From Bdellovibrio sp. ZAP7 (GTDB taxonomy: Bacteria; Bdellovibrionota; FAC87; UBA2466), in assembly GCA_945878405.1 (NCBI GenBank), contig CAMCTJ010000001.1:196304-260303 (forward strand): 64,000 nucleotides of DNA. Reading direction: 5' to 3'. A program made the translations under genes and the position numbers. The stretch's first letter is position 1. Each line of letters begins with the position of its first letter. The notes under the pieces were generated by a model. It worked only from the letters and a program-made list of their open reading frames with translations, ran no database searches and was not told where the DNA came from. Positions 5,212 through 17,917 of the stretch are shown in pieces.

Positions 5212-5631
5212 TTAAGCCTGTTGTTGTGGCTGGTGTTGAGCGCGCTTTCGCAGCTCTTTTGCCTCTCGGTTCTTCTTCATTTCTTCTTCAGCTAAAGTGA
5301 TCTGCTTTTTGATCTTCGTATAGTCGTAATCAGCTTCCACTTGAACTGTAATGAACCGAATTACTTCGCCTAAAATTTTGAAATGGCGCTCAATTTCTTC
5401 AACAACGCCAGATTTTCCCTTGTAAACAACCACGGAGTAGCTACCCATGGTTTCATCATTGATAGGATAGGCCAAATGAGTCAGGCCCCAATTATCGCGG
5501 TTAACAACTTTACCGCTGAATTTCTCAATCACATTATCAACTTTTTGATGAATGGCGTTTGCTTCGGCTTCTGGCAAACCAGACTTCAAGATGTAAACGG
5601 TTTCGTAGGTGTTACTAGTACTGTAGGACAT
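5212..5631 (-). CDS. rpsF: 30S ribosomal protein S6
   Basis: S6 of 139 residues beginning MSYSTSNTYETVYILKSG. A longer frame reaches 5661, but ATG 5631 has AGGAG seven bases upstream and places the conserved YETVYIL strand at the usual distance. Typical features include the NWGLTHLAYPI stretch and a Gln/basic-rich C-terminal tail ending in QPQQQA. S6 normally binds S18 in the 30S platform, but no rpsR gene is present in this operon. A stable hairpin sits in the 5' leader. Confidence 0.97.
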   Translation of the reverse strand: MSYSTSNTYETVYILKSGLPEAEANAIHQKVDNVIEKFSGKVVNRDNWGLTHLAYPINDETMGSYSVVVYKGKSGVVEEIERHFKILGEVIRFITVQVEADYDYTKIKKQITLAEEEMKKNREAKELRKRAQHQPQQQA

Positions 5632-10223: not shown

Positions 10224-10919
10224 TCAGACCAGTTCTCGATGAGCTCTTACGTGATCGGCCATAAATTTTACGACCTGAACAATTCCCATTCTTGACGTAT
10301 CTACGACTACCGCATCTGCAGCGCACTTGAGAGGGGCATGTTTGCGAGTTGAATCTTGCTCGTCTCGATGTTGGTTCTGTCTGAGAATTTCCGATAATTT
10401 TATTTTTGTTCCGGTCTTTTTTAACTGTTTAAACCGGCGCATCGCTCTCACCTTAGAATCAGCCGTTACGTAAAACTTATAATCGGCCTGAGGAAAAACT
10501 GCGGTACCAATATCTCTGCCCTCTAAGACCACAGGAAATTTTTTGCTCCAACTTTTTCCTAAAGTACGCTGTCTTCGAGTGAGGGCATCTCGAACAGCTT
10601 TGAATCGACTCACTGACGAAGCTGCTTGACTTACTTTTGGACTTCTCAGTTTCAAACCCAAATCAATCCCGTTGACTAATAAATGCCGGCGATCAGGGCT
10701 GGGTTGAAAAGTTAAAGCCCGTGCAGTAATTGCAAAATCTCGTTCTGTTTTGGCTCCCGCCCTTAATCCAAAATAGGCAACACTTCGATACATAGCGCCT
10801 GTATCGAGCAGCATCCCTTGTAATTCCTCTGCCAACAATCTACTCACCGTAGATTTTCCAGCACCTGCGGGACCGTCGATCGCAATAATAAAACCTTTTT
10901 TGGAATGCTTTTTCACCAT
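10224..10919 (-). CDS. cmk: Cytidylate kinase
   Basis: About 231 residues. The P-loop IDGPAGAGKSTVSR, the LDTGAMYRS segment and LEGRDIGTAVFP are standard for CMP kinase, which makes CDP/dCDP from CMP/dCMP. ATG 10919 is favoured: GGAG lies eight bases upstream, whereas the GTG at 10925 is too close to it. The stop abuts spoVG. The start is two bases beyond the end of the acyltransferase/DUF3108 frame, so it belongs to the lpx operon. Its product pool also feeds CMP-sugar and phospholipid synthesis. Confidence 0.95.
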   Translation of the reverse strand: MVKKHSKKGFIIAIDGPAGAGKSTVSRLLAEELQGMLLDTGAMYRSVAYFGLRAGAKTERDFAITARALTFQPSPDRRHLLVNGIDLGLKLRSPKVSQAASSVSRFKAVRDALTRRQRTLGKSWSKKFPVVLEGRDIGTAVFPQADYKFYVTADSKVRAMRRFKQLKKTGTKIKLSEILRQNQHRDEQDSTRKHAPLKCAADAVVVDTSRMGIVQVVKFMADHVRAHRELV

Positions 10920-10921
10920 GC

Positions 10922-12751
10922 TCACTGCTCCTTAATAGAGACCAGCCTTCCCAGCAAAGAACCGATTTTCACTTTTGCATCAAATCTTACTAGGTACTTT
11001 TTTGAATCATCGCTCAGCCACATGTAGAGATCTCCGGTAGGCCTCAAAACGTTGTTCAGCTTTACGTCTACTTTGATTTTCCAACACTGGAAAACCCCCG
11101 CTCCACTGGTAACTATTTCTTTGGCAACAGGAGTGAGCTCTACATTCAGGTTCTGTCCGTTCTCATAAATCCAGAACTGTTGTTTTTTATTTAGCTCATA
11201 GTTAAGGGCTCTCGCATAATACAAGGCACTAAACATGTCGCGCGACTGAGGAGGCATCGAGTCCGCTCGATCGATGTCCTGATTGCCCCACTTCTGAGAA
11301 ATCCTCTTTGACCAATAATAAGCCTTTTCATTGGGGTGATCAAAAACCACGCGAGTTTCTTTCTTTTGGGCTGTTTCAAACATAGAAAGCAGAAACTTAT
11401 AGGGGATAAACCCAGACCTATCGATGAATGATTCAATCGTATTATCCACGTGATAAATGGTGTCGACCATTTTTGAAGAAAGAACATTTCCCCAAAGATG
11501 AAAGCTAGGACGTCCTTGAATTTCCGGTCCTTCACGAACTTCCAAAACACCCTTTCCGGCCGGAAGGGTGAGCCATGTTAAATCGATTACCATTCGCTCG
11601 CCTATTTCGAAGGGGACCTTATCCACTGGAACAATTGAGAAAGGTGTTTTTGCAGAGACCTTTTTCGGGGCATTCTTCGCTTCTACTTTTTTTGTTTTTT
11701 TCTCCAAAATCACCGGGACGGCTTCTGTCGAATCCACCTGACCATAAGTAGGCACAGCGATATTTGGATCGGGAGGAAGCTCAATACCCGTGGGAGTAGC
11801 GTTCATTTTCTGCGACGAACACCCTTGAAGCACAAAGGCTAATAACAAAGCCATAATAACGGGTTTTATTCGCCATCGAGACTCGCCACGAAAGGGTTTC
11901 CATCGTTTGTGCAACCACAACCACTGCTCGGGAAACTGTCTCACCTGTTTCTCGATGGTATCGTTATACCATTGAGTCTTTTCATAGAGCCGTTCCTCTC
12001 GTGTTTCTGACCCAACAACAGATTCCTCTAACTTTTCAATATGGACTTGAATTTTTCCGTTCCTTCCGCGGTAGCTATAAGCCGTAAAAAGAGAATTTTT
12101 ACTTTTTTCAGTGATAAGGGCAAGTCCCGCCGCCGTGCCAGCCTCCCGCCCGAAAAAAGTGACGGGTAAGCCAATGGGCGGCCCCATAAACTGGTCCAAA
12201 ACAAAAACCACAAAACGCTGTCTTCCCAAAGATTCAAAAATATCTCGGATCGTCCCCGACTCATAGATCACACGAGCTCCAAAACGAGTCCTAAACCAGG
12301 TAAGAAAGTGCTGGGCCACCTGAGTTTGTTGTCGCTTTACAATGATATCGCATGGCATTCCATGGGCAGAAGCTGACTGAATCGCAAACTCCCAATTGCC
12401 CAGGTGACTGGTCAAGAGGATCCCTCCTTGATTGAGGGCCATTTGCTTTTTGACCGGTTCCCAAAAGAGATCTGTTTTGGTCTTAAAATCCTCTGAGGTC
12501 CAAATAAGAGACTCTATCCACTCAAGCAAAACGAGCGCATAGTGAATATAGTTTTGCTTGCCAAGTTCTTTAATTTCTTCTGGACTTTTCTCATCTCCAA
12601 AGGCTCGAGTAAGATTTCCGATCACGATAGCGCGCCTGAATCGAAAAACATCAAAGAAAAGCAGTCCTGCTGCACGACCAAGGAACAATTTAGCCCTGTA
12701 AGGAACCCAATTGAGCAAATAAGAAAAGGGAAGGAGAAACAATCTTAGCAT
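10922..12751 (-). CDS. Lipid A acyltransferase (LpxL/HtrB-like) fused in frame to a DUF3108 lipoprotein-like region
   Basis: A 609-residue frame with two unrelated parts. Residues 1-290 are a lipid A late acyltransferase: hydrophobic N-terminus, catalytic HLGNWE (His116, Glu121), and the terminal WLWLHKRWK typical of LpxL/LpxM ends. Directly after this comes SRWRIKPVIMALLLAFVLQGC, a basic stretch, a hydrophobic core and a lipobox-like LQGC (Cys311), then a Pro/Lys-rich linker and a DUF3108-like domain (about 385-605). The second part looks like an independent lipoprotein without its own stop before it. Options are a true fusion, an internal start at ATG 11854, or a one-base error: an out-of-frame ATG at 11876 would begin a normal signal peptide if one base differed. 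Confidence 0.8.
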   Translation of the reverse strand: MLRLFLLPFSYLLNWVPYRAKLFLGRAAGLLFFDVFRFRRAIVIGNLTRAFGDEKSPEEIKELGKQNYIHYALVLLEWIESLIWTSEDFKTKTDLFWEPVKKQMALNQGGILLTSHLGNWEFAIQSASAHGMPCDIIVKRQQTQVAQHFLTWFRTRFGARVIYESGTIRDIFESLGRQRFVVFVLDQFMGPPIGLPVTFFGREAGTAAGLALITEKSKNSLFTAYSYRGRNGKIQVHIEKLEESVVGSETREERLYEKTQWYNDTIEKQVRQFPEQWLWLHKRWKPFRGESRWRIKPVIMALLLAFVLQGCSSQKMNATPTGIELPPDPNIAVPTYGQVDSTEAVPVILEKKTKKVEAKNAPKKVSAKTPFSIVPVDKVPFEIGERMVIDLTWLTLPAGKGVLEVREGPEIQGRPSFHLWGNVLSSKMVDTIYHVDNTIESFIDRSGFIPYKFLLSMFETAQKKETRVVFDHPNEKAYYWSKRISQKWGNQDIDRADSMPPQSRDMFSALYYARALNYELNKKQQFWIYENGQNLNVELTPVAKEIVTSGAGVFQCWKIKVDVKLNNVLRPTGDLYMWLSDDSKKYLVRFDAKVKIGSLLGRLVSIKEQ

Positions 12752-13761
12752 GCTTGTCTCATCCTTATCTCCAGAGTCTCCCAGAATTCCAAAGGCAAAT
12801 CGTACTCTGTATGAGCTACCCTCAAGGGTAAATCGAATTCGCCAAACAGGTCCTTTACCTTGAAAAAGTCTTTTTCCGTCGTAACAAAAAACTCTACAGC
12901 GCGGTCTTTGGCTAATTTTATGAGCTCTTTAATATCGTCTTTAGTATAGGCGTGGTGGTCTGGATATATTTTTAAAAACTCGGTGGGCGCCCAATGACTA
13001 AGATCCTCAATAAATCGCTGGGGCCTCCCAATTCCACAAAAGGCCCCAAAACGCGTTTGATCGGGATTCACGGTCTCTCCCTGATCATCCAAAACAGAAA
13101 CAGGTTTTCTGAGACCTACAAAGCAGGGAACACCTGGGGCTAATTGGCTAACAATATTTTTCCAATCTTGAACCCAAGCCGAATTCCGATTCGAACAGGT
13201 TATCAAAATCAAAGTAGCCCTTTTTACTGAACTAAGTCCTTCTCTCAGGTTTCCCAGGGGAACGCAGGCGGTCTCCCAGGGATTGTCATCACCCGGGAGG
13301 ACTAACAGATTAATAGTTCTTTCCAGTTGGACATGCTGGAATCCATCGTCGAGCAGAGCTACCTGATATCGATTAGCCAGATCGAATTTTTGAATAACCT
13401 CAAACCGATTAGCTCCTATATACACGTCACTATCAGTTGAATGACTGATGACCCAAGGCTCATCTCCAAACTGAGTCGGGCCTGATTTTGATTGCTCATC
13501 TAATTGAACACCCACTTTTGTCGAATGGCTTTTATAACCACGAGATAAAATCACTGGCTTTATGGACTTCAAATGATTTGCTAGCTGAATTACAATGGGC
13601 GTTTTGCCAGTTCCCCCTAGGTGGATATTCCCAACGGAGATAACCAACAGGCCAGGATTATTTCTTTTTCTACTCCTCAAAGTAAAATCAACTGCGAGTG
13701 AATAAAGCCAGGACAAGGGCAGTAATGCTATCCAGAGCAAATCACGTACGAGTTGAGCCAT
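12745..13761 (-). CDS. lpxK: Tetraacyldisaccharide 4'-kinase
   Basis: About 338 residues. LpxK phosphorylates the 4' position of the lipid A disaccharide at the inner membrane. The Walker A region reads VGNIHLGGTGKTP, followed by LSRGYKS and DDGFQH, all family hallmarks; an N-terminal hydrophobic segment (WIALLPLSWLYSLAV) anchors it. ATG 13761 (MAQLVRDLL) is preferred over 13809 because it removes a long overlap with lpxB and has AAGG upstream. It still overlaps lpxB by 20 bases and the next gene by seven. Confidence 0.95.
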   Translation of the reverse strand: MAQLVRDLLWIALLPLSWLYSLAVDFTLRSRKRNNPGLLVISVGNIHLGGTGKTPIVIQLANHLKSIKPVILSRGYKSHSTKVGVQLDEQSKSGPTQFGDEPWVISHSTDSDVYIGANRFEVIQKFDLANRYQVALLDDGFQHVQLERTINLLVLPGDDNPWETACVPLGNLREGLSSVKRATLILITCSNRNSAWVQDWKNIVSQLAPGVPCFVGLRKPVSVLDDQGETVNPDQTRFGAFCGIGRPQRFIEDLSHWAPTEFLKIYPDHHAYTKDDIKELIKLAKDRAVEFFVTTEKDFFKVKDLFGEFDLPLRVAHTEYDLPLEFWETLEIRMRQAC

Positions 13762-14905
13762 AGGAACCTTGATTTGAACTCGCACGGCTCTTTTTAAGGT
13801 TTTCAACAACTCGAGAGGCAGCTCGCGTTTGATCTCCCTTTTCTCCCAAAAGCTGTCGACAGCTTAAAAGTGAGGACGCCATGTTTAGTCGGGAGAGACC
13901 ACTATTAATCATAAATTTGATTTCAGAGAACAACTTTTGAGGAGATGCGTTTTCCTGGAAACATTCTTTTACTACTTCTCGGCCCAGCAAAATATTAGGC
14001 ATCCCAATAAAACCTTGATACTTGATCAGGTTTTTGAAAAGCCAAGAGGACGACTGGCTGACTTTATAAAAGAGACAAAAGGGCGTTCCAATAAGTGCGG
14101 TTTCTAGGGTCGCAGTTCCGCTCGCTACAACGGCAATATCTGCCCACTGCAATGATTCCCAACTATCCTGGGATACCTCTGCTGGCTTCAGCCCAAGTTT
14201 TTCACTGACCCAAGAAGTTGAGAGGGTATTCGCTATCGGAACCTGAATTTGTGCTCGTGGATACTCTTTCTTTATCAACTCCATCAGACCACGAAGAATA
14301 GGGGCATGGTGCCGTATCTCGCTTTTTCTACTTCCTGGTAATAAAGCTATGCGGGGCTCTTTTTCGATTACCGCTTGGTCTCGATACCTTCTTCGAGGTT
14401 GTACCATTTCAACCAATGGGTGCCCCACAAAGGAAACTGAAATTCCGGCCTTTTCATAAATTTCTTTCTCAAAGGGAAAAACCACCAGCATCTCATCGAC
14501 TCGTTCTTTGATGAGTTTGATTCTGTTTTTTCTCCAGGCCCACAATTGGGGAGAAACATAATAAATGACTGGAACTCCCAACTTTTTTAATTTCTTGGCC
14601 ACTCGAAGATTAAAATCAGGAAGATCAATTAAAACCGCAATGTCAGGCTTTCGCTGTTCGATGACCTTGAGAATTTTTCGGTAGGATAACAAGACGTCTT
14701 TGGCGCGGTCCCACCAATCCGAGAAACCAACCACATTCAGGGACTCCGCTGGAACCACAACTTCCATCCCCTGCTCAACAAGCCTTTTTCCCCCAACCCC
14801 GTAAAAGGTTGCTCCAGGCACAAGCTTTTTTACTTCACGAACAAGGCTTGCTGCTGCCAAATCGGCAGAGGCTTCTCCTGCAACCAAAAAGATATTAGTG
14901 GACAT
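13742..14905 (-). CDS. lpxB: Lipid-A-disaccharide synthase
   Basis: About 387 residues of a GT19 glycosyltransferase condensing UDP-diacylglucosamine with lipid X. The opening MSTNIFLVAGEASADL matches the LpxB GExSGD region, with Ala-Asp in place of Gly-Asp. Further conserved pieces are FYGVGG, VGFSDW, DLPDFNLRVAKK, YYVSPQLWAWR and FVGHPLVE, and LLPGSRKSEI for nucleotide binding. ATG 14905 is chosen over 14941 because of a GGGGGG ribosome-binding site close upstream. It overlaps the oxidoreductase gene by 11 bases. Confidence 0.96.
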   Translation of the reverse strand: MSTNIFLVAGEASADLAAASLVREVKKLVPGATFYGVGGKRLVEQGMEVVVPAESLNVVGFSDWWDRAKDVLLSYRKILKVIEQRKPDIAVLIDLPDFNLRVAKKLKKLGVPVIYYVSPQLWAWRKNRIKLIKERVDEMLVVFPFEKEIYEKAGISVSFVGHPLVEMVQPRRRYRDQAVIEKEPRIALLPGSRKSEIRHHAPILRGLMELIKKEYPRAQIQVPIANTLSTSWVSEKLGLKPAEVSQDSWESLQWADIAVVASGTATLETALIGTPFCLFYKVSQSSSWLFKNLIKYQGFIGMPNILLGREVVKECFQENASPQKLFSEIKFMINSGLSRLNMASSLLSCRQLLGEKGDQTRAASRVVENLKKSRASSNQGSYGSTRT

Positions 14906-15908
14906 ATTCCCCCCAATATCGCGATAGGAATTTCTTCTCAAGTGGAGAAAGTCTTAATTTTTCTGGTTGGCCCTGCTTCTCGGTTATTTTCTGTTTGATT
15001 GCTTCGGTAACTTCCAGAGCGCGAAGACCGTCTGGGCCGCTCACGGGAACTTGCCCCAATCCTTTTACTGCCTTCACAAAAGCATCTACTTGTTCCGATA
15101 ACGAATCACTCTGTCCCAAAGAAATAGTTTGCTTTTCAAGGGGCTCGTCATTTTCAACATCTAAAATCTGAGTCGTTCCAGAAAGAAGATCACAATTAAC
15201 AATTCTATCATTCCAGATAAGTTGCGTTTCCCGATGTCGCTCGGAGGCAACCCAATTGGCTTTCAGGTGAGCAACGGTTCCCGACGGAAATTCAAGTCGA
15301 GCATAGGCTATATCTATGGGGGTAAGTCCCGCCGAAACTCCTTCTGCAGAAATAGAGACTGGGGGCTCCTGCATTAACCACAGCACAAGATCTATGTCGT
15401 GAATCATTAAATCAGTAACTATATCCATGCCTCGTTCTCGAGAGGGAACTAGGGAATTTCTTTCCGTCGAAATGACAACGGGCTTTTTGTAAGATCTCAG
15501 CGGAATCTGGCGCAACAGCGAAAGCCAACGGTATCTCTCAACAAAGCCAGTCTGCAAAACGAGATTTTTTTCTTGGGATATTTTCACAAGTTCTGCGGCC
15601 AGTTCGACACGGTCACAAATTGGCTTTTCAATAAACAGGTGAAGGTTGTTGTCTAAAGCTTGTTTTGCTATCTCGAAATGCGTGCTCGTGGGACTTGCTA
15701 TAAAAACTGCGTCAACCTCAAAAAAAAGCTCTTCTGATTTTTCGTAGGTTTTTAATCCATGTTCTTTAGCAACTTGGGTTAAACGCGCTTGATCTTTGTC
15801 ATAGGCTCCCACCAACTCGACTTCGGGGTGCTTTAATAACTTTTCCAGATGGTAAGTCCCCATCTTCCCAAGACCAATCAAGCCAATTTGTAATTTTTTA
15901 TCCAGCAC
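14895..15908 (-). CDS. Gfo/Idh/MocA-family oxidoreductase in the lpx operon
   Basis: A 337-residue NAD(P)-dependent sugar oxidoreductase. The Rossmann motif GLIGLGKMGTYH opens the protein, EKPICD is the usual EKP dipeptide motif region, and MIHDIDLVLWL carries the conserved HD pair. Oxidoreductases of this kind often sit between lpxA and lpxB. In some bacteria the homologue GnnA oxidises UDP-GlcNAc at C3 for a diamino lipid A, working with the aminotransferase GnnB. No aminotransferase is visible here, so that role is only a possibility. The GTG start shares one base with the lpxA stop (TAGTG). Confidence 0.88.
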   Translation of the reverse strand: MLDKKLQIGLIGLGKMGTYHLEKLLKHPEVELVGAYDKDQARLTQVAKEHGLKTYEKSEELFFEVDAVFIASPTSTHFEIAKQALDNNLHLFIEKPICDRVELAAELVKISQEKNLVLQTGFVERYRWLSLLRQIPLRSYKKPVVISTERNSLVPSRERGMDIVTDLMIHDIDLVLWLMQEPPVSISAEGVSAGLTPIDIAYARLEFPSGTVAHLKANWVASERHRETQLIWNDRIVNCDLLSGTTQILDVENDEPLEKQTISLGQSDSLSEQVDAFVKAVKGLGQVPVSGPDGLRALEVTEAIKQKITEKQGQPEKLRLSPLEKKFLSRYWGEYVH

Positions 15909-16702
15909 TATCTGACGAACCCCACTTTAGAGTTTTGGACGAAATCAATAAAATGTTGGGCCTCGGGTAAGGAACCAAGCTCGGAAACAGCTTTTTCGAC
16001 AGCAGAGGAAACCGTAAGATTCTGTAAATAGAAAATCTTGTAGAGGCTTTTTAGCTTTTGAATAGTTTCATTGCTGATTCCCCGGCGGCTCATCCCAATT
16101 GAATTTATTCCCTGAACCTCAAACTCATTCCCTTTACCCATTAGGTAAGGGGGAAGATCTTTGCGAAGGAGAGTGCCCCCACCGATATAACAAAACTTTC
16201 CAACGCGACAAAACTGAACCACTCCACTAACACCGCCAATATTGGCATAATCTTCAACTACGACGTGACCCGCTAACTGAACCGCATTGCAGAGGATGAC
16301 ATGGGAACCCACTACGCAATCGTGAGCCACGTGGGCGTAGGCCATTAAGTACGAATCCGATCCAATAGTTGTTTTACCCGTTCCCTGTGCTGTTCCACGA
16401 TGAACGGTCACAGACTCACGTATGATGGTGCGATCGCCAATTTCTGTTAGGGTTGGCTCCTGATGATAATGCAGATGCTGTGGCTCAGAACCTAACACTG
16501 TAAAGGGAAAAACTTGGACCGCTTTACCCAAGGTAGTATTTCCTCGAATAGACACGTGCTCTTGAAGATTGGAATCATCACCAATGCTGACCCCTTCTCC
16601 AATCACTGAGTAGGCTCCAACACGCACGCGGTGACCTAACTGCGCTTTTGGATGAATAATCGCAGTGGGATGAATCACTGTTTCAGTAAAACCCTCAGCC
16701 AT
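15908..16702 (-). CDS. lpxA: UDP-N-acetylglucosamine acyltransferase
   Basis: A 264-residue left-handed beta-helix protein of hexapeptide repeats, starting TVIHPTAIIHPKAQLG. The central motif AYAHVAHDCVVGSHVILCN contains the catalytic His of LpxA, and the C-terminal helical part with GINSIGMSRRGIS is typical. LpxA attaches the first 3-hydroxyacyl chain in lipid A synthesis. ATG overlaps the end of lpxD (AATGGCTGA). Whether it prefers UDP-GlcNAc or the 3-amino sugar cannot be read by eye. Confidence 0.97.
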   Translation of the reverse strand: MAEGFTETVIHPTAIIHPKAQLGHRVRVGAYSVIGEGVSIGDDSNLQEHVSIRGNTTLGKAVQVFPFTVLGSEPQHLHYHQEPTLTEIGDRTIIRESVTVHRGTAQGTGKTTIGSDSYLMAYAHVAHDCVVGSHVILCNAVQLAGHVVVEDYANIGGVSGVVQFCRVGKFCYIGGGTLLRKDLPPYLMGKGNEFEVQGINSIGMSRRGISNETIQKLKSLYKIFYLQNLTVSSAVEKAVSELGSLPEAQHFIDFVQNSKVGFVR

Positions 16703-17729
16703 TTAGTTTTTCCTCGAGTTTTTTTAATTTCCTAGCCATCTCTGGTAGCTTTTTTGAAATCTGATAGGTTCGGAGAGCCTCCGTAAGGGGAGTTGCCGGA
16801 CACTGAAAATATTTTTGGTTAGCTTCCAGATCGCGAGTCACTCCTGTTTGTCCCCCACAAATTACATTTTCATTAATGGTGAGATGGCCCGCGACACCCA
16901 CTTGTCCTCCCAAAATCACTCCATCTTTCAGAACTGAGGAACCCGCAAGCCCAACTTGCGCACAGAGGATACAGTTTTTCCCAATTCGACAGTTGTGACC
17001 TATGTGAACTTGGTCATCAATTTTCGTGCCTCGTCCAATGAAGGTATTTCCAATCGTACTCCGATCAATGGTACATTTGGCTCCAATTCGAACATCGTCT
17101 TCGATTGTCACACCACCGATTTGTGGCATTTCAGTAAATCCGCTATCTCCCTCAAGAAACCCAAAGCCTTCCGAACCAATCACAGCTCCAGAAAAAACTC
17201 GAACTCGATTACCCATTTCAACCCGGCACAGAATCGTTACAAAGGGGTGAATCTCGCAATGGTTTCCAATAACAACATCAGGTCCAATATAGGAAGATGG
17301 ATAAATAATCGTTCCCTCTCCTATAGTGACATTCTCGCAAATAATGGAACCAGGACCAATCGAAACTCCCTTCCCCATTCGGACGGAAGGATGAATTTTT
17401 GCCTCGAAAGAAATTCCTTTCCAGGGTGATGCTGGCAATAAGGTCTTTGCAATTTCTGCAAAGGCTGCCTTGGGTTCTTCGACGATTAAAAAAGTAATGG
17501 GGGAGTCTTTGATGACAGACTCTCGATTGGTGAGAACAACAACCCCTGCCTCTAACTGATTTAAATGGCCCCGTAATTTTGGGTTTGAGAAAAAGGCAAG
17601 GCTCCCCGATCGGGCATCTTCGAGAGAAGACAAACGCTCTATAGATACTTCCCCGTTTCCAACCAAAGAAGCATTTAAAACTTTGCTTAATTTCCCCGCG
17701 GTTAGGGGAAACGACACCGATTCCATCAT
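16695..17729 (-). CDS. lpxD: UDP-3-O-(3-hydroxyacyl)glucosamine N-acyltransferase
   Basis: About 344 residues. The N-terminal uridine-binding domain (SSLEDARSGSLAFFSNPKL) precedes hexapeptide repeats, and the catalytic His region reads TKIDDQVHIGHNCRIG. LpxD adds the N-linked acyl chain. The frame extends to 17828, but ATG 17729 (MMESVSFPLTAGKL) gives the normal family length and spacing. It is the first gene of a minus-strand run lpxD-lpxA-oxidoreductase-lpxB-lpxK-acyltransferase-cmk; lpxC and fabZ, often neighbours, are not in this window. Confidence 0.96.
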   Translation of the reverse strand: MMESVSFPLTAGKLSKVLNASLVGNGEVSIERLSSLEDARSGSLAFFSNPKLRGHLNQLEAGVVVLTNRESVIKDSPITFLIVEEPKAAFAEIAKTLLPASPWKGISFEAKIHPSVRMGKGVSIGPGSIICENVTIGEGTIIYPSSYIGPDVVIGNHCEIHPFVTILCRVEMGNRVRVFSGAVIGSEGFGFLEGDSGFTEMPQIGGVTIEDDVRIGAKCTIDRSTIGNTFIGRGTKIDDQVHIGHNCRIGKNCILCAQVGLAGSSVLKDGVILGGQVGVAGHLTINENVICGGQTGVTRDLEANQKYFQCPATPLTEALRTYQISKKLPEMARKLKKLEEKLNG

Positions 17730-17765
17730 GGCCAAAAACCTATATGCTGCAAGGCATGAAGTAAA

Positions 17766-17780
17766 TGGACTTTCAGTCCA
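17766..17780. promoter_or_regulatory. Short perfect hairpin between lpxD and the MFS gene
   Basis: TGGACT and AGTCCA form a perfect 6-bp inverted repeat around a TTC loop in the divergent region 17730-17917. It lies 37 bases upstream of the preferred lpxD start and could be an operator or leader structure. There is no T-run, so it is not a terminator. Confidence 0.25.
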
Positions 17781-17917
17781 AACCTCCAAGGTTAACGAGG
17801 ACATACCAAGGCGCAGAAACAAACGCAATGCGCCGCAACAATGGCCTCGCTAAAAGTTGAATATCTTGCTAGAATTAAAGATATTTCTGGCTCATAGCCT
17901 ACAATCCCCACAAGTCC

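What the first reader, a model, noticed from the sequence alone, without database searches (positions are those of the whole stretch)
10922..12751. Lipid A acyltransferase reads without a stop into a lipoprotein with its own lipobox
The acyltransferase ends like normal LpxL proteins (WLWLHKRWK) at residue 285, and a basic n-region, hydrophobic core and LQGC follow at once, then DUF3108. If real, a cytoplasmic-side acyltransferase would carry a second anchor and a periplasmic domain. Alternatively ATG 11854 is an internal start, but MALLLAFVLQGC lacks a basic n-region. An out-of-frame ATG at 11876 opens MANKTR, a normal n-region, and needs a one-base indel in the AAAACCC stretch to reach the lipobox frame.
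Basis: partly seen in the sequence, partly recalled or inferred. Interest (0 to 1): 0.66.

Follow-up and report, generated by a model that had tools for sequence, protein, structure and literature searches.

The report
Lipid A enzyme fused to lipoprotein
In one whole class of little-known bacteria, the gene for a lipid A (endotoxin) building enzyme runs straight into the gene for a neighbouring membrane lipoprotein, with the lipoprotein's own cleavage signal kept in the middle, which suggests one long protein that the cell cuts in two.

Summary
The 609-codon frame at 10922-12751(-) joins an LpxL-type acyltransferase (residues 11-285) to a DUF3108 lipoprotein (Cys 311; DUF3108 at 390-599). All 15 held genomes of the window's class read through the junction without a stop; all keep a hydrophobic stretch with Cys, and an invariant linker [FY]-x-G-x-[PS]-[RK]-W right after the acyltransferase. 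Outside the class, 39 of 39 examined pairs are separate genes, the lipoprotein with its own signal. Fused DUF3108 domains form one clade: one old, retained fusion. The frame is the genome's only match to either family. No internal start is conserved; four of 15 have no ATG/GTG/TTG that could start even an 11-residue signal peptide. Best reading: a polyprotein whose internal type II signal peptide inserts in the membrane, is lipidated by Lgt and cut by LspA, giving an acyltransferase with the signal peptide as C-terminal anchor, plus a free lipoprotein. Fused translation is well supported; cleavage is inferred. Both enzymes are in the genome.

The parts
10922..12751 (-). Whole fused reading frame, 609 codons: LpxL-type acyltransferase + linker + internal lipoprotein signal peptide + DUF3108 lipoprotein
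   Evidence: homologues without a stop at the junction in 15 of 15 class genomes
11897..12721 (-). Lipid A acyltransferase domain (residues 11-285), with HLGNWE (HX4E) motif
   Evidence: PF03279 126.6 bits, cut-off 22.3; H-x4-E in 13 of 15 rows, the other 2 rows are cut before it
11873..11896 (-). Junction linker PFRGESRW (residues 286-293); [FY]-x-G-x-[PS]-[RK]-W in 15 of 15
11822..11872 (-). Internal type II signal peptide, basic start and hydrophobic core RIKPVIMALLLAFVLQG (residues 294-310)
   Evidence: 12-residue hydropathy maxima 2.10 to 3.15 and net positive charge before the core in 15 of 15
11819..11821 (-). Lipobox cysteine (residue 311), predicted lipidation site and new N-terminus
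   Evidence: Cys in 15 of 15; local lipobox pattern met in 12 of 15 (pattern recalled)
11852..11854 (-). In-frame internal ATG (residue 300), candidate but unconserved internal start, no Shine-Dalgarno core
11585..11818 (-). Variable linker of the mature lipoprotein (residues 312-389), with a conserved TPTGI-LPPDP start
10955..11584 (-). DUF3108 domain (residues 390-599)
   Evidence: PF11306 107.1 bits, cut-off 26
12745..13809 (-). lpxK, overlapping the start of the fused frame
   Evidence: TIGR00682 171.8 bits, cut-off 91.95
13742..14941 (-). lpxB
   Evidence: TIGR00215 269.8 bits, cut-off 190.25
15908..17828 (-). lpxA (15908-16702) and lpxD (16695-17828), same lipid A gene run
   Evidence: NF003657 and NF002060 over cut-off
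10224..10925 (-). Cytidylate kinase gene, its GTG start overlapping the stop of the fused frame
   Evidence: PF02224 211.9 bits

Best explanation
A fused gene making a polyprotein. Shown by sequence: an LpxL-type acyltransferase and a DUF3108 lipoprotein, separate neighbours elsewhere in the phylum, share one reading frame throughout this class, with the lipoprotein's signal peptide and lipobox kept in the middle and a conserved short linker before it. Inferred: the acyltransferase folds on the cytoplasmic side of the inner membrane; the basic linker stays inside and the hydrophobic stretch enters the membrane as an internal signal peptide; Lgt puts a diacylglyceryl group on Cys 311 and LspA cuts before it. 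This yields an acyltransferase (residues 1-310) with the signal peptide as C-terminal anchor, and a lipoprotein (311-609) without Asp at +2, which by the E. coli rule (recalled) would go to the outer membrane. The two products are made one to one.
For: Read-through in 15 of 15 class genomes, 8 genera and 2 families. Linker [FY]-x-G-x-[PS]-[RK]-W invariant in 15 of 15: these codons lie after the acyltransferase and before the hydrophobic core, and in 43 of 43 outgroup acyltransferases the enzyme ends at a stop there or further on. In the signal peptide dN is high (0.12 to 1.66 in nine pairs), yet no stop has arisen, hydropathy is kept and Cys is invariant: the pattern of a working signal peptide. 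+2 residues are S, A, T or V, never D. The genome has two LspA and two Lgt matches over cut-off, and no second match to either domain. A likely picture of the pre-fusion state is seen in G328: same frame, HRRWKPFRGGAR, stop, then at once ATG of a lipoprotein.
Against: No protein evidence. Cys 311 lies far beyond the usual place of a lipobox. Three of 15 rows miss the local lipobox pattern, and the window's own LQGC fails the stricter [LVI][ASTVI][GAS]C (met in 5 of 15). An internal start with an unusual codon is not excluded: in L053, a separate-gene relative, the only ATG/GTG/TTG within 45 codons before Cys is a TTG four codons before it, and in L037 the only one is 44 codons away. The structure model was useless (mean pLDDT 36.6).
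Confidence: 0.66

Rival explanations
1. The fusion is translated whole and stays whole: a two-anchor inner-membrane protein with a cytoplasmic acyltransferase and a periplasmic DUF3108 domain, lipidated on Cys or not, but not cut.
For: One frame in 15 of 15; an internal membrane span with a basic cytoplasmic side is a normal membrane anchor.
Against: Cys with a small residue before it is kept in 15 of 15 while the rest of the span changes fast; a plain anchor would not need it. The separate-gene relatives carry the DUF3108 domain on a lipoprotein, and the +2 residues fit release.
Confidence: 0.15
2. Two products by two starts: ribosomes also (or mainly) start inside the frame just before the hydrophobic core, so that the lipoprotein is made separately; the read-through is tolerated or gives a minor form.
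For: ATG 11854 exists; 11 of 15 rows have some ATG/GTG/TTG 11 or more codons before Cys; two rows (L007, L008) have ATG 13 codons before Cys with GAG or GAGG upstream. Many separate-gene relatives have the two frames overlapping.
Against: Start codon and place are not conserved; L002, L009, L013 and L015 have none at a useful distance; the window's ATG has no Shine-Dalgarno core and leaves no basic residue. The invariant linker lies upstream of nearly all these starts and needs the joined product.
Confidence: 0.16
3. Assembly or sequencing error: a lost stop or a one-base indel in the AAAACCC stretch joins two normal genes.
For: Draft assembly; separate genes are the rule in the other classes of the phylum (39 of 39 examined pairs).
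Against: 15 of 15 class genomes from separate assemblies show the same join at the same place.
Confidence: 0.01

Closest known systems
LpxL/LpxM lipid A acyltransferases (PF03279; solved relative 5KN7)
   Same: Whole domain with HX4E, in a lipid A gene run behind lpxK
   Different: No NCBIfam acyltransferase model reaches its cut-off (best 118.8 of 248); the chain goes on into a second protein
Separate LpxL-DUF3108 lipoprotein gene pairs of the same phylum
   Same: Same two families in the same order and strand, close together in 37 of 39 examined genomes (2 are over 2 kb apart)
   Different: Two genes with a stop and a separate lipoprotein start, in 39 of 39 examined
FbcH polyprotein of Bradyrhizobium japonicum (cytochrome b + c1; recalled, no paper seen)
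   Same: A bacterial fusion whose second half carries an internal signal peptide at which a signal peptidase is thought to cut the two proteins apart
   Different: There signal peptidase I; here a type II (lipoprotein) signal and LspA would be used

Membership tests
Lip_A_acyltrans / LpxL-type (PF03279) | Profile score over Pfam cut-off | tested here: met
   126.6 bits, cut-off 22.3
Lip_A_acyltrans / LpxL-type (PF03279) | HX4D/E catalytic motif (recalled as defining) | tested here: met
   13 of 15 rows; 2 rows (L003, L013) cut before the motif
LpxL equivalog (substrate and order of acylation) | Score over an NCBIfam equivalog cut-off | tested here: not met
   best NF006270, 118.8 of 248; so which acyl step it does is not settled
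DUF3108 (PF11306) | Profile score over Pfam cut-off | tested here: met
   107.1 bits, cut-off 26
Bacterial lipoprotein (Lgt/LspA substrate) | Hydrophobic core and lipobox with Cys | tested here: met
   Cys and hydrophobic core in 15 of 15; local PS51257-like pattern (recalled) in 12 of 15, window included
Bacterial lipoprotein (Lgt/LspA substrate) | Signal peptide at the N-terminus, Cys within about the first 40 residues | tested here: not met
   Cys at residue 311 of the frame
Bacterial lipoprotein (Lgt/LspA substrate) | Basic residues before the core | tested here: met
   net charge +1 to +4 in 15 of 15, counted from RWK to 14 residues before Cys; not met if translation began at ATG 11854
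Bacterial lipoprotein (Lgt/LspA substrate) | Lipidation and cleavage | not testable with these tools
   needs protein chemistry; Lgt and LspA genes present
Polyprotein cut by a signal peptidase | One frame for two proteins with an internal signal peptide | tested here: met
Polyprotein cut by a signal peptidase | Shown cleavage into two products | not testable with these tools
   none

The most novel reading that the evidence does not exclude
A bacterial polyprotein whose maturation enzyme is the lipoprotein signal peptidase LspA: the same cut frees an outer-membrane lipoprotein and leaves the signal peptide as the permanent C-terminal membrane anchor of a lipid A acyltransferase. It ties lipid A acylation one to one to an envelope lipoprotein in a whole bacterial class, perhaps served by a class-typical tandem pair of LspA genes.
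Probability: 0.6. Interest if true: 0.7.

Novelty: new variant of a known kind. Interest (0 to 1): 0.55.

Why it matters
If true, LspA, a drug target, processes a fused enzyme-lipoprotein precursor and not only small N-terminal leaders, and lipobox finders that look only at protein N-termini miss such lipoproteins. It also gives a firm link between DUF3108, a family of unknown function, and lipid A synthesis: the genes stand together across a phylum and were fused and kept fused in one class.

Tried and rejected
Indel or lost-stop artefact: rejected by 15 of 15 class genomes. Out-of-frame ATG 11876: present in 7 of 15 where the R/K codon ends in A before TGG; opens a 31-codon frame without a lipobox in the window. 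Structure: AlphaFold on a 3-row alignment, mean pLDDT 36.6; no fold search was run on it. DUF3108 against solved structures by sequence: phmmer with the window's domain gave only three chains at E 1.1 to 1.9, and the 14-row profile gave none up to E 1 (L015 left out, it lacks most of the domain). Papers: ten searches. No paper on an internal lipobox, an LspA-cut polyprotein or an LpxL-lipoprotein fusion turned up (listings only); DUF3108 occurs in 4 papers, passages read in two; [quoted passage not shown] PMC4364669), which I could not confirm by sequence. FbcH was sought and not found (one unrelated listing), so it rests on recall. Tandem LspA as a cause of the fusion: partly tested; 12 of 15 class genomes have it (three have no LspA match), but 2 of 44 relatives outside the class have it too (G031, G038; in G031 the acyltransferase and DUF3108 lie on different contigs), so I keep it as a lead only. 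The lack of start codons is weaker than it looks, because some separate-gene relatives also lack a near canonical start (L037, L053). My first automatic pick of the lipobox Cys was wrong in four rows (L002, L003, L004, L014), corrected. A script failed and was repeated; one printed nothing because of a bad pattern and was repeated.

Full report
What is there. The minus-strand frame 10922-12751 is open for 609 codons from an ATG with a Shine-Dalgarno core to one stop. Residues 11-285 match the lipid A acyltransferase family and 390-599 match DUF3108, both well over Pfam's cut-offs. Between them are the usual LpxL end (WLWLHKRWK, to residue 285), a short linker PFRGESRW, a basic and then hydrophobic stretch, LQGC with Cys 311, and a variable linker of 78 residues. 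The frame lies behind lpxD, lpxA, a Gfo/Idh/MocA-type gene, lpxB and lpxK, and before a cytidylate kinase gene. It is the only match to either family in the genome assembly (95.75% complete).

Is it an error? No. A search of all 15 held genomes of the window's class (8 genera, 2 families, the window's own included) found the relative in 15 of 15, and in each the frame crosses the junction without a stop. Three of these rows are partial for other reasons: G002 has a frame change near residue 172 of the acyltransferase, and G008 and G004 are cut by contig ends; all three still cover the junction. Over the same stretch, frame +1 holds a stop in 14 of 15 and frame +2 in 10 of 15.

What the rest of the phylum has. 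I looked at 39 acyltransferase-DUF3108 pairs outside the class: 37 regions fetched and read, and two loci read. In 39 of 39 the acyltransferase frame ends at a stop, in nearly all within some 40 residues of its H-x-R-[WF] motif (one, G017, runs on for longer), and DUF3108 sits in a separate frame downstream; in two (G046, G059) the genes are over 2 kb apart. Four more acyltransferases, fetched because one search showed a long open frame, also end at a stop; in three of them a lipobox frame follows in the same frame, in the fourth (G329) I saw only the end of the enzyme; DUF3108 itself was not checked in these four. A simple rule found a hydrophobic stretch and Cys in front of the DUF3108 domain in 35 of the 37; the two it missed (L068, L069) show one by eye. 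Genomes whose two matches lie on different contigs were not examined. A wider search of 368 genomes of the phylum gave 184 with a match; among the rows printed, every frame of 600 codons or more without a stop belongs to the class (the list was cut, so this is not a full count). One genome, G328, shows what a pre-fusion state could look like: the acyltransferase ends ...HRRWKPFRGGAR, stop, and a lipoprotein's ATG follows at once in the same frame. Loss of one stop codon there would give the arrangement found in the class.

One event, long kept. A maximum-likelihood tree of 43 DUF3108 domains (14 fused, 29 separate) puts all fused ones on one side of a branch with support 100/99. Left out of it were L015, which lacks most of the domain, 8 of the 37 regions, and all six loci. 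The simplest account is one fusion before the class diversified, with no later split in the 15 genomes seen.

Signs of selection at the join. Right after the acyltransferase motif, all 15 have [FY]-x-G-x-[PS]-[RK]-W with fixed spacing. These codons come before the hydrophobic core, so they are kept for the joined product. By contrast the signal peptide changes fast (dN 0.12 to 1.66 in the nine pairs), but always stays hydrophobic, has net positive charge in front, and ends in a Cys with Gly, Ala or Ser before it, in 15 of 15. The local lipobox pattern PS51257 (recalled) fits 12 of 15; a stricter one fits 5 of 15, the window not among them. The residue after Cys is S, A, T or V, never Asp.

Could the lipoprotein start inside? 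The window has ATG 11854, but it leaves no basic residue and has no Shine-Dalgarno core. Eleven of 15 rows have some ATG/GTG/TTG 11 or more codons before Cys, at differing places; four (L002, L009, L013, L015) have none, and L009 has none at all between the acyltransferase and Cys. This argues for one translation product, with a caution: among separate-gene relatives, L053 has only a TTG four codons before Cys and L037 only a TTG 44 codons away, so unusual or distant starts may be used in this phylum.

How it would work. The enzyme half should sit on the inner side of the inner membrane, as LpxL does (established knowledge, recalled). The linker's basic residues keep that side in, and the hydrophobic stretch spans the membrane, bringing Cys 311 to where Lgt and LspA act. 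The genome has two matches for each enzyme over the cut-off; the two LspA genes are in tandem and both keep the NMIDR/NIAD and NLIDR/NVAD motifs that I recall as holding the catalytic aspartates. A cut before Cys 311 would leave residues 1-310 as an enzyme with a C-terminal anchor and set free a lipoprotein of 299 residues. Translation as one chain I hold at about 0.85; the full scheme with the cut at about 0.66. What the DUF3108 lipoprotein does is not known; its steady company with lipid A genes and the fusion suggest a part in LPS or outer-membrane assembly (inference).

Novelty. In ten paper searches I found nothing on an internal lipobox cut by LspA or on an LpxL-lipoprotein fusion; the library holds open-licence papers only. 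The closest precedent I know, FbcH of Bradyrhizobium, is recalled and uses signal peptidase I. Fusions and signal-peptidase-cut precursors are known kinds, so I file this as a new variant of a known kind.

Noticed in passing
L073 971-1959 (G000 contig C3: 94040-94965): Two lspA genes in tandem with overlapping ends; tandem pairs in 12 of 15 class genomes (three have no match) and in 2 of 44 other relatives searched, G031 and G038. The first copy reads HHRNKGFALSF where the second reads YVRNKGAAFGF, so they may have different substrates.
   Followed up: partly
L075 and L076 (G000 contigs C8 and C9): Two separate Lgt matches over the Pfam cut-off in a 2.2 Mb genome.
   Followed up: no
L032 near 5463-5473 (G002:C98): The frame changes inside the acyltransferase near residue 172 (query 1-173 and 171-608 in different frames); real or an assembly error, not tested.
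   Followed up: no
L080 (G328:C41:42400-44700): Same-frame pair with one stop and then at once a lipoprotein's ATG, and a linker PFRGGAR like that of the fused class: a likely picture of the state before fusion.
   Followed up: partly
window 14895-15908 (-): A Gfo/Idh/MocA-type oxidoreductase gene between lpxA and lpxB; from recall, gnnA of the diamino-sugar lipid A pathway sits in this place in other bacteria. No gnnB partner was looked for.
   Followed up: no
L068 (G017:C128:5750-7850): The acyltransferase frame of this relative runs on into a tail containing ASEVVIASEAKQSHPQS, which looks like a translated repeat element.
   Followed up: no
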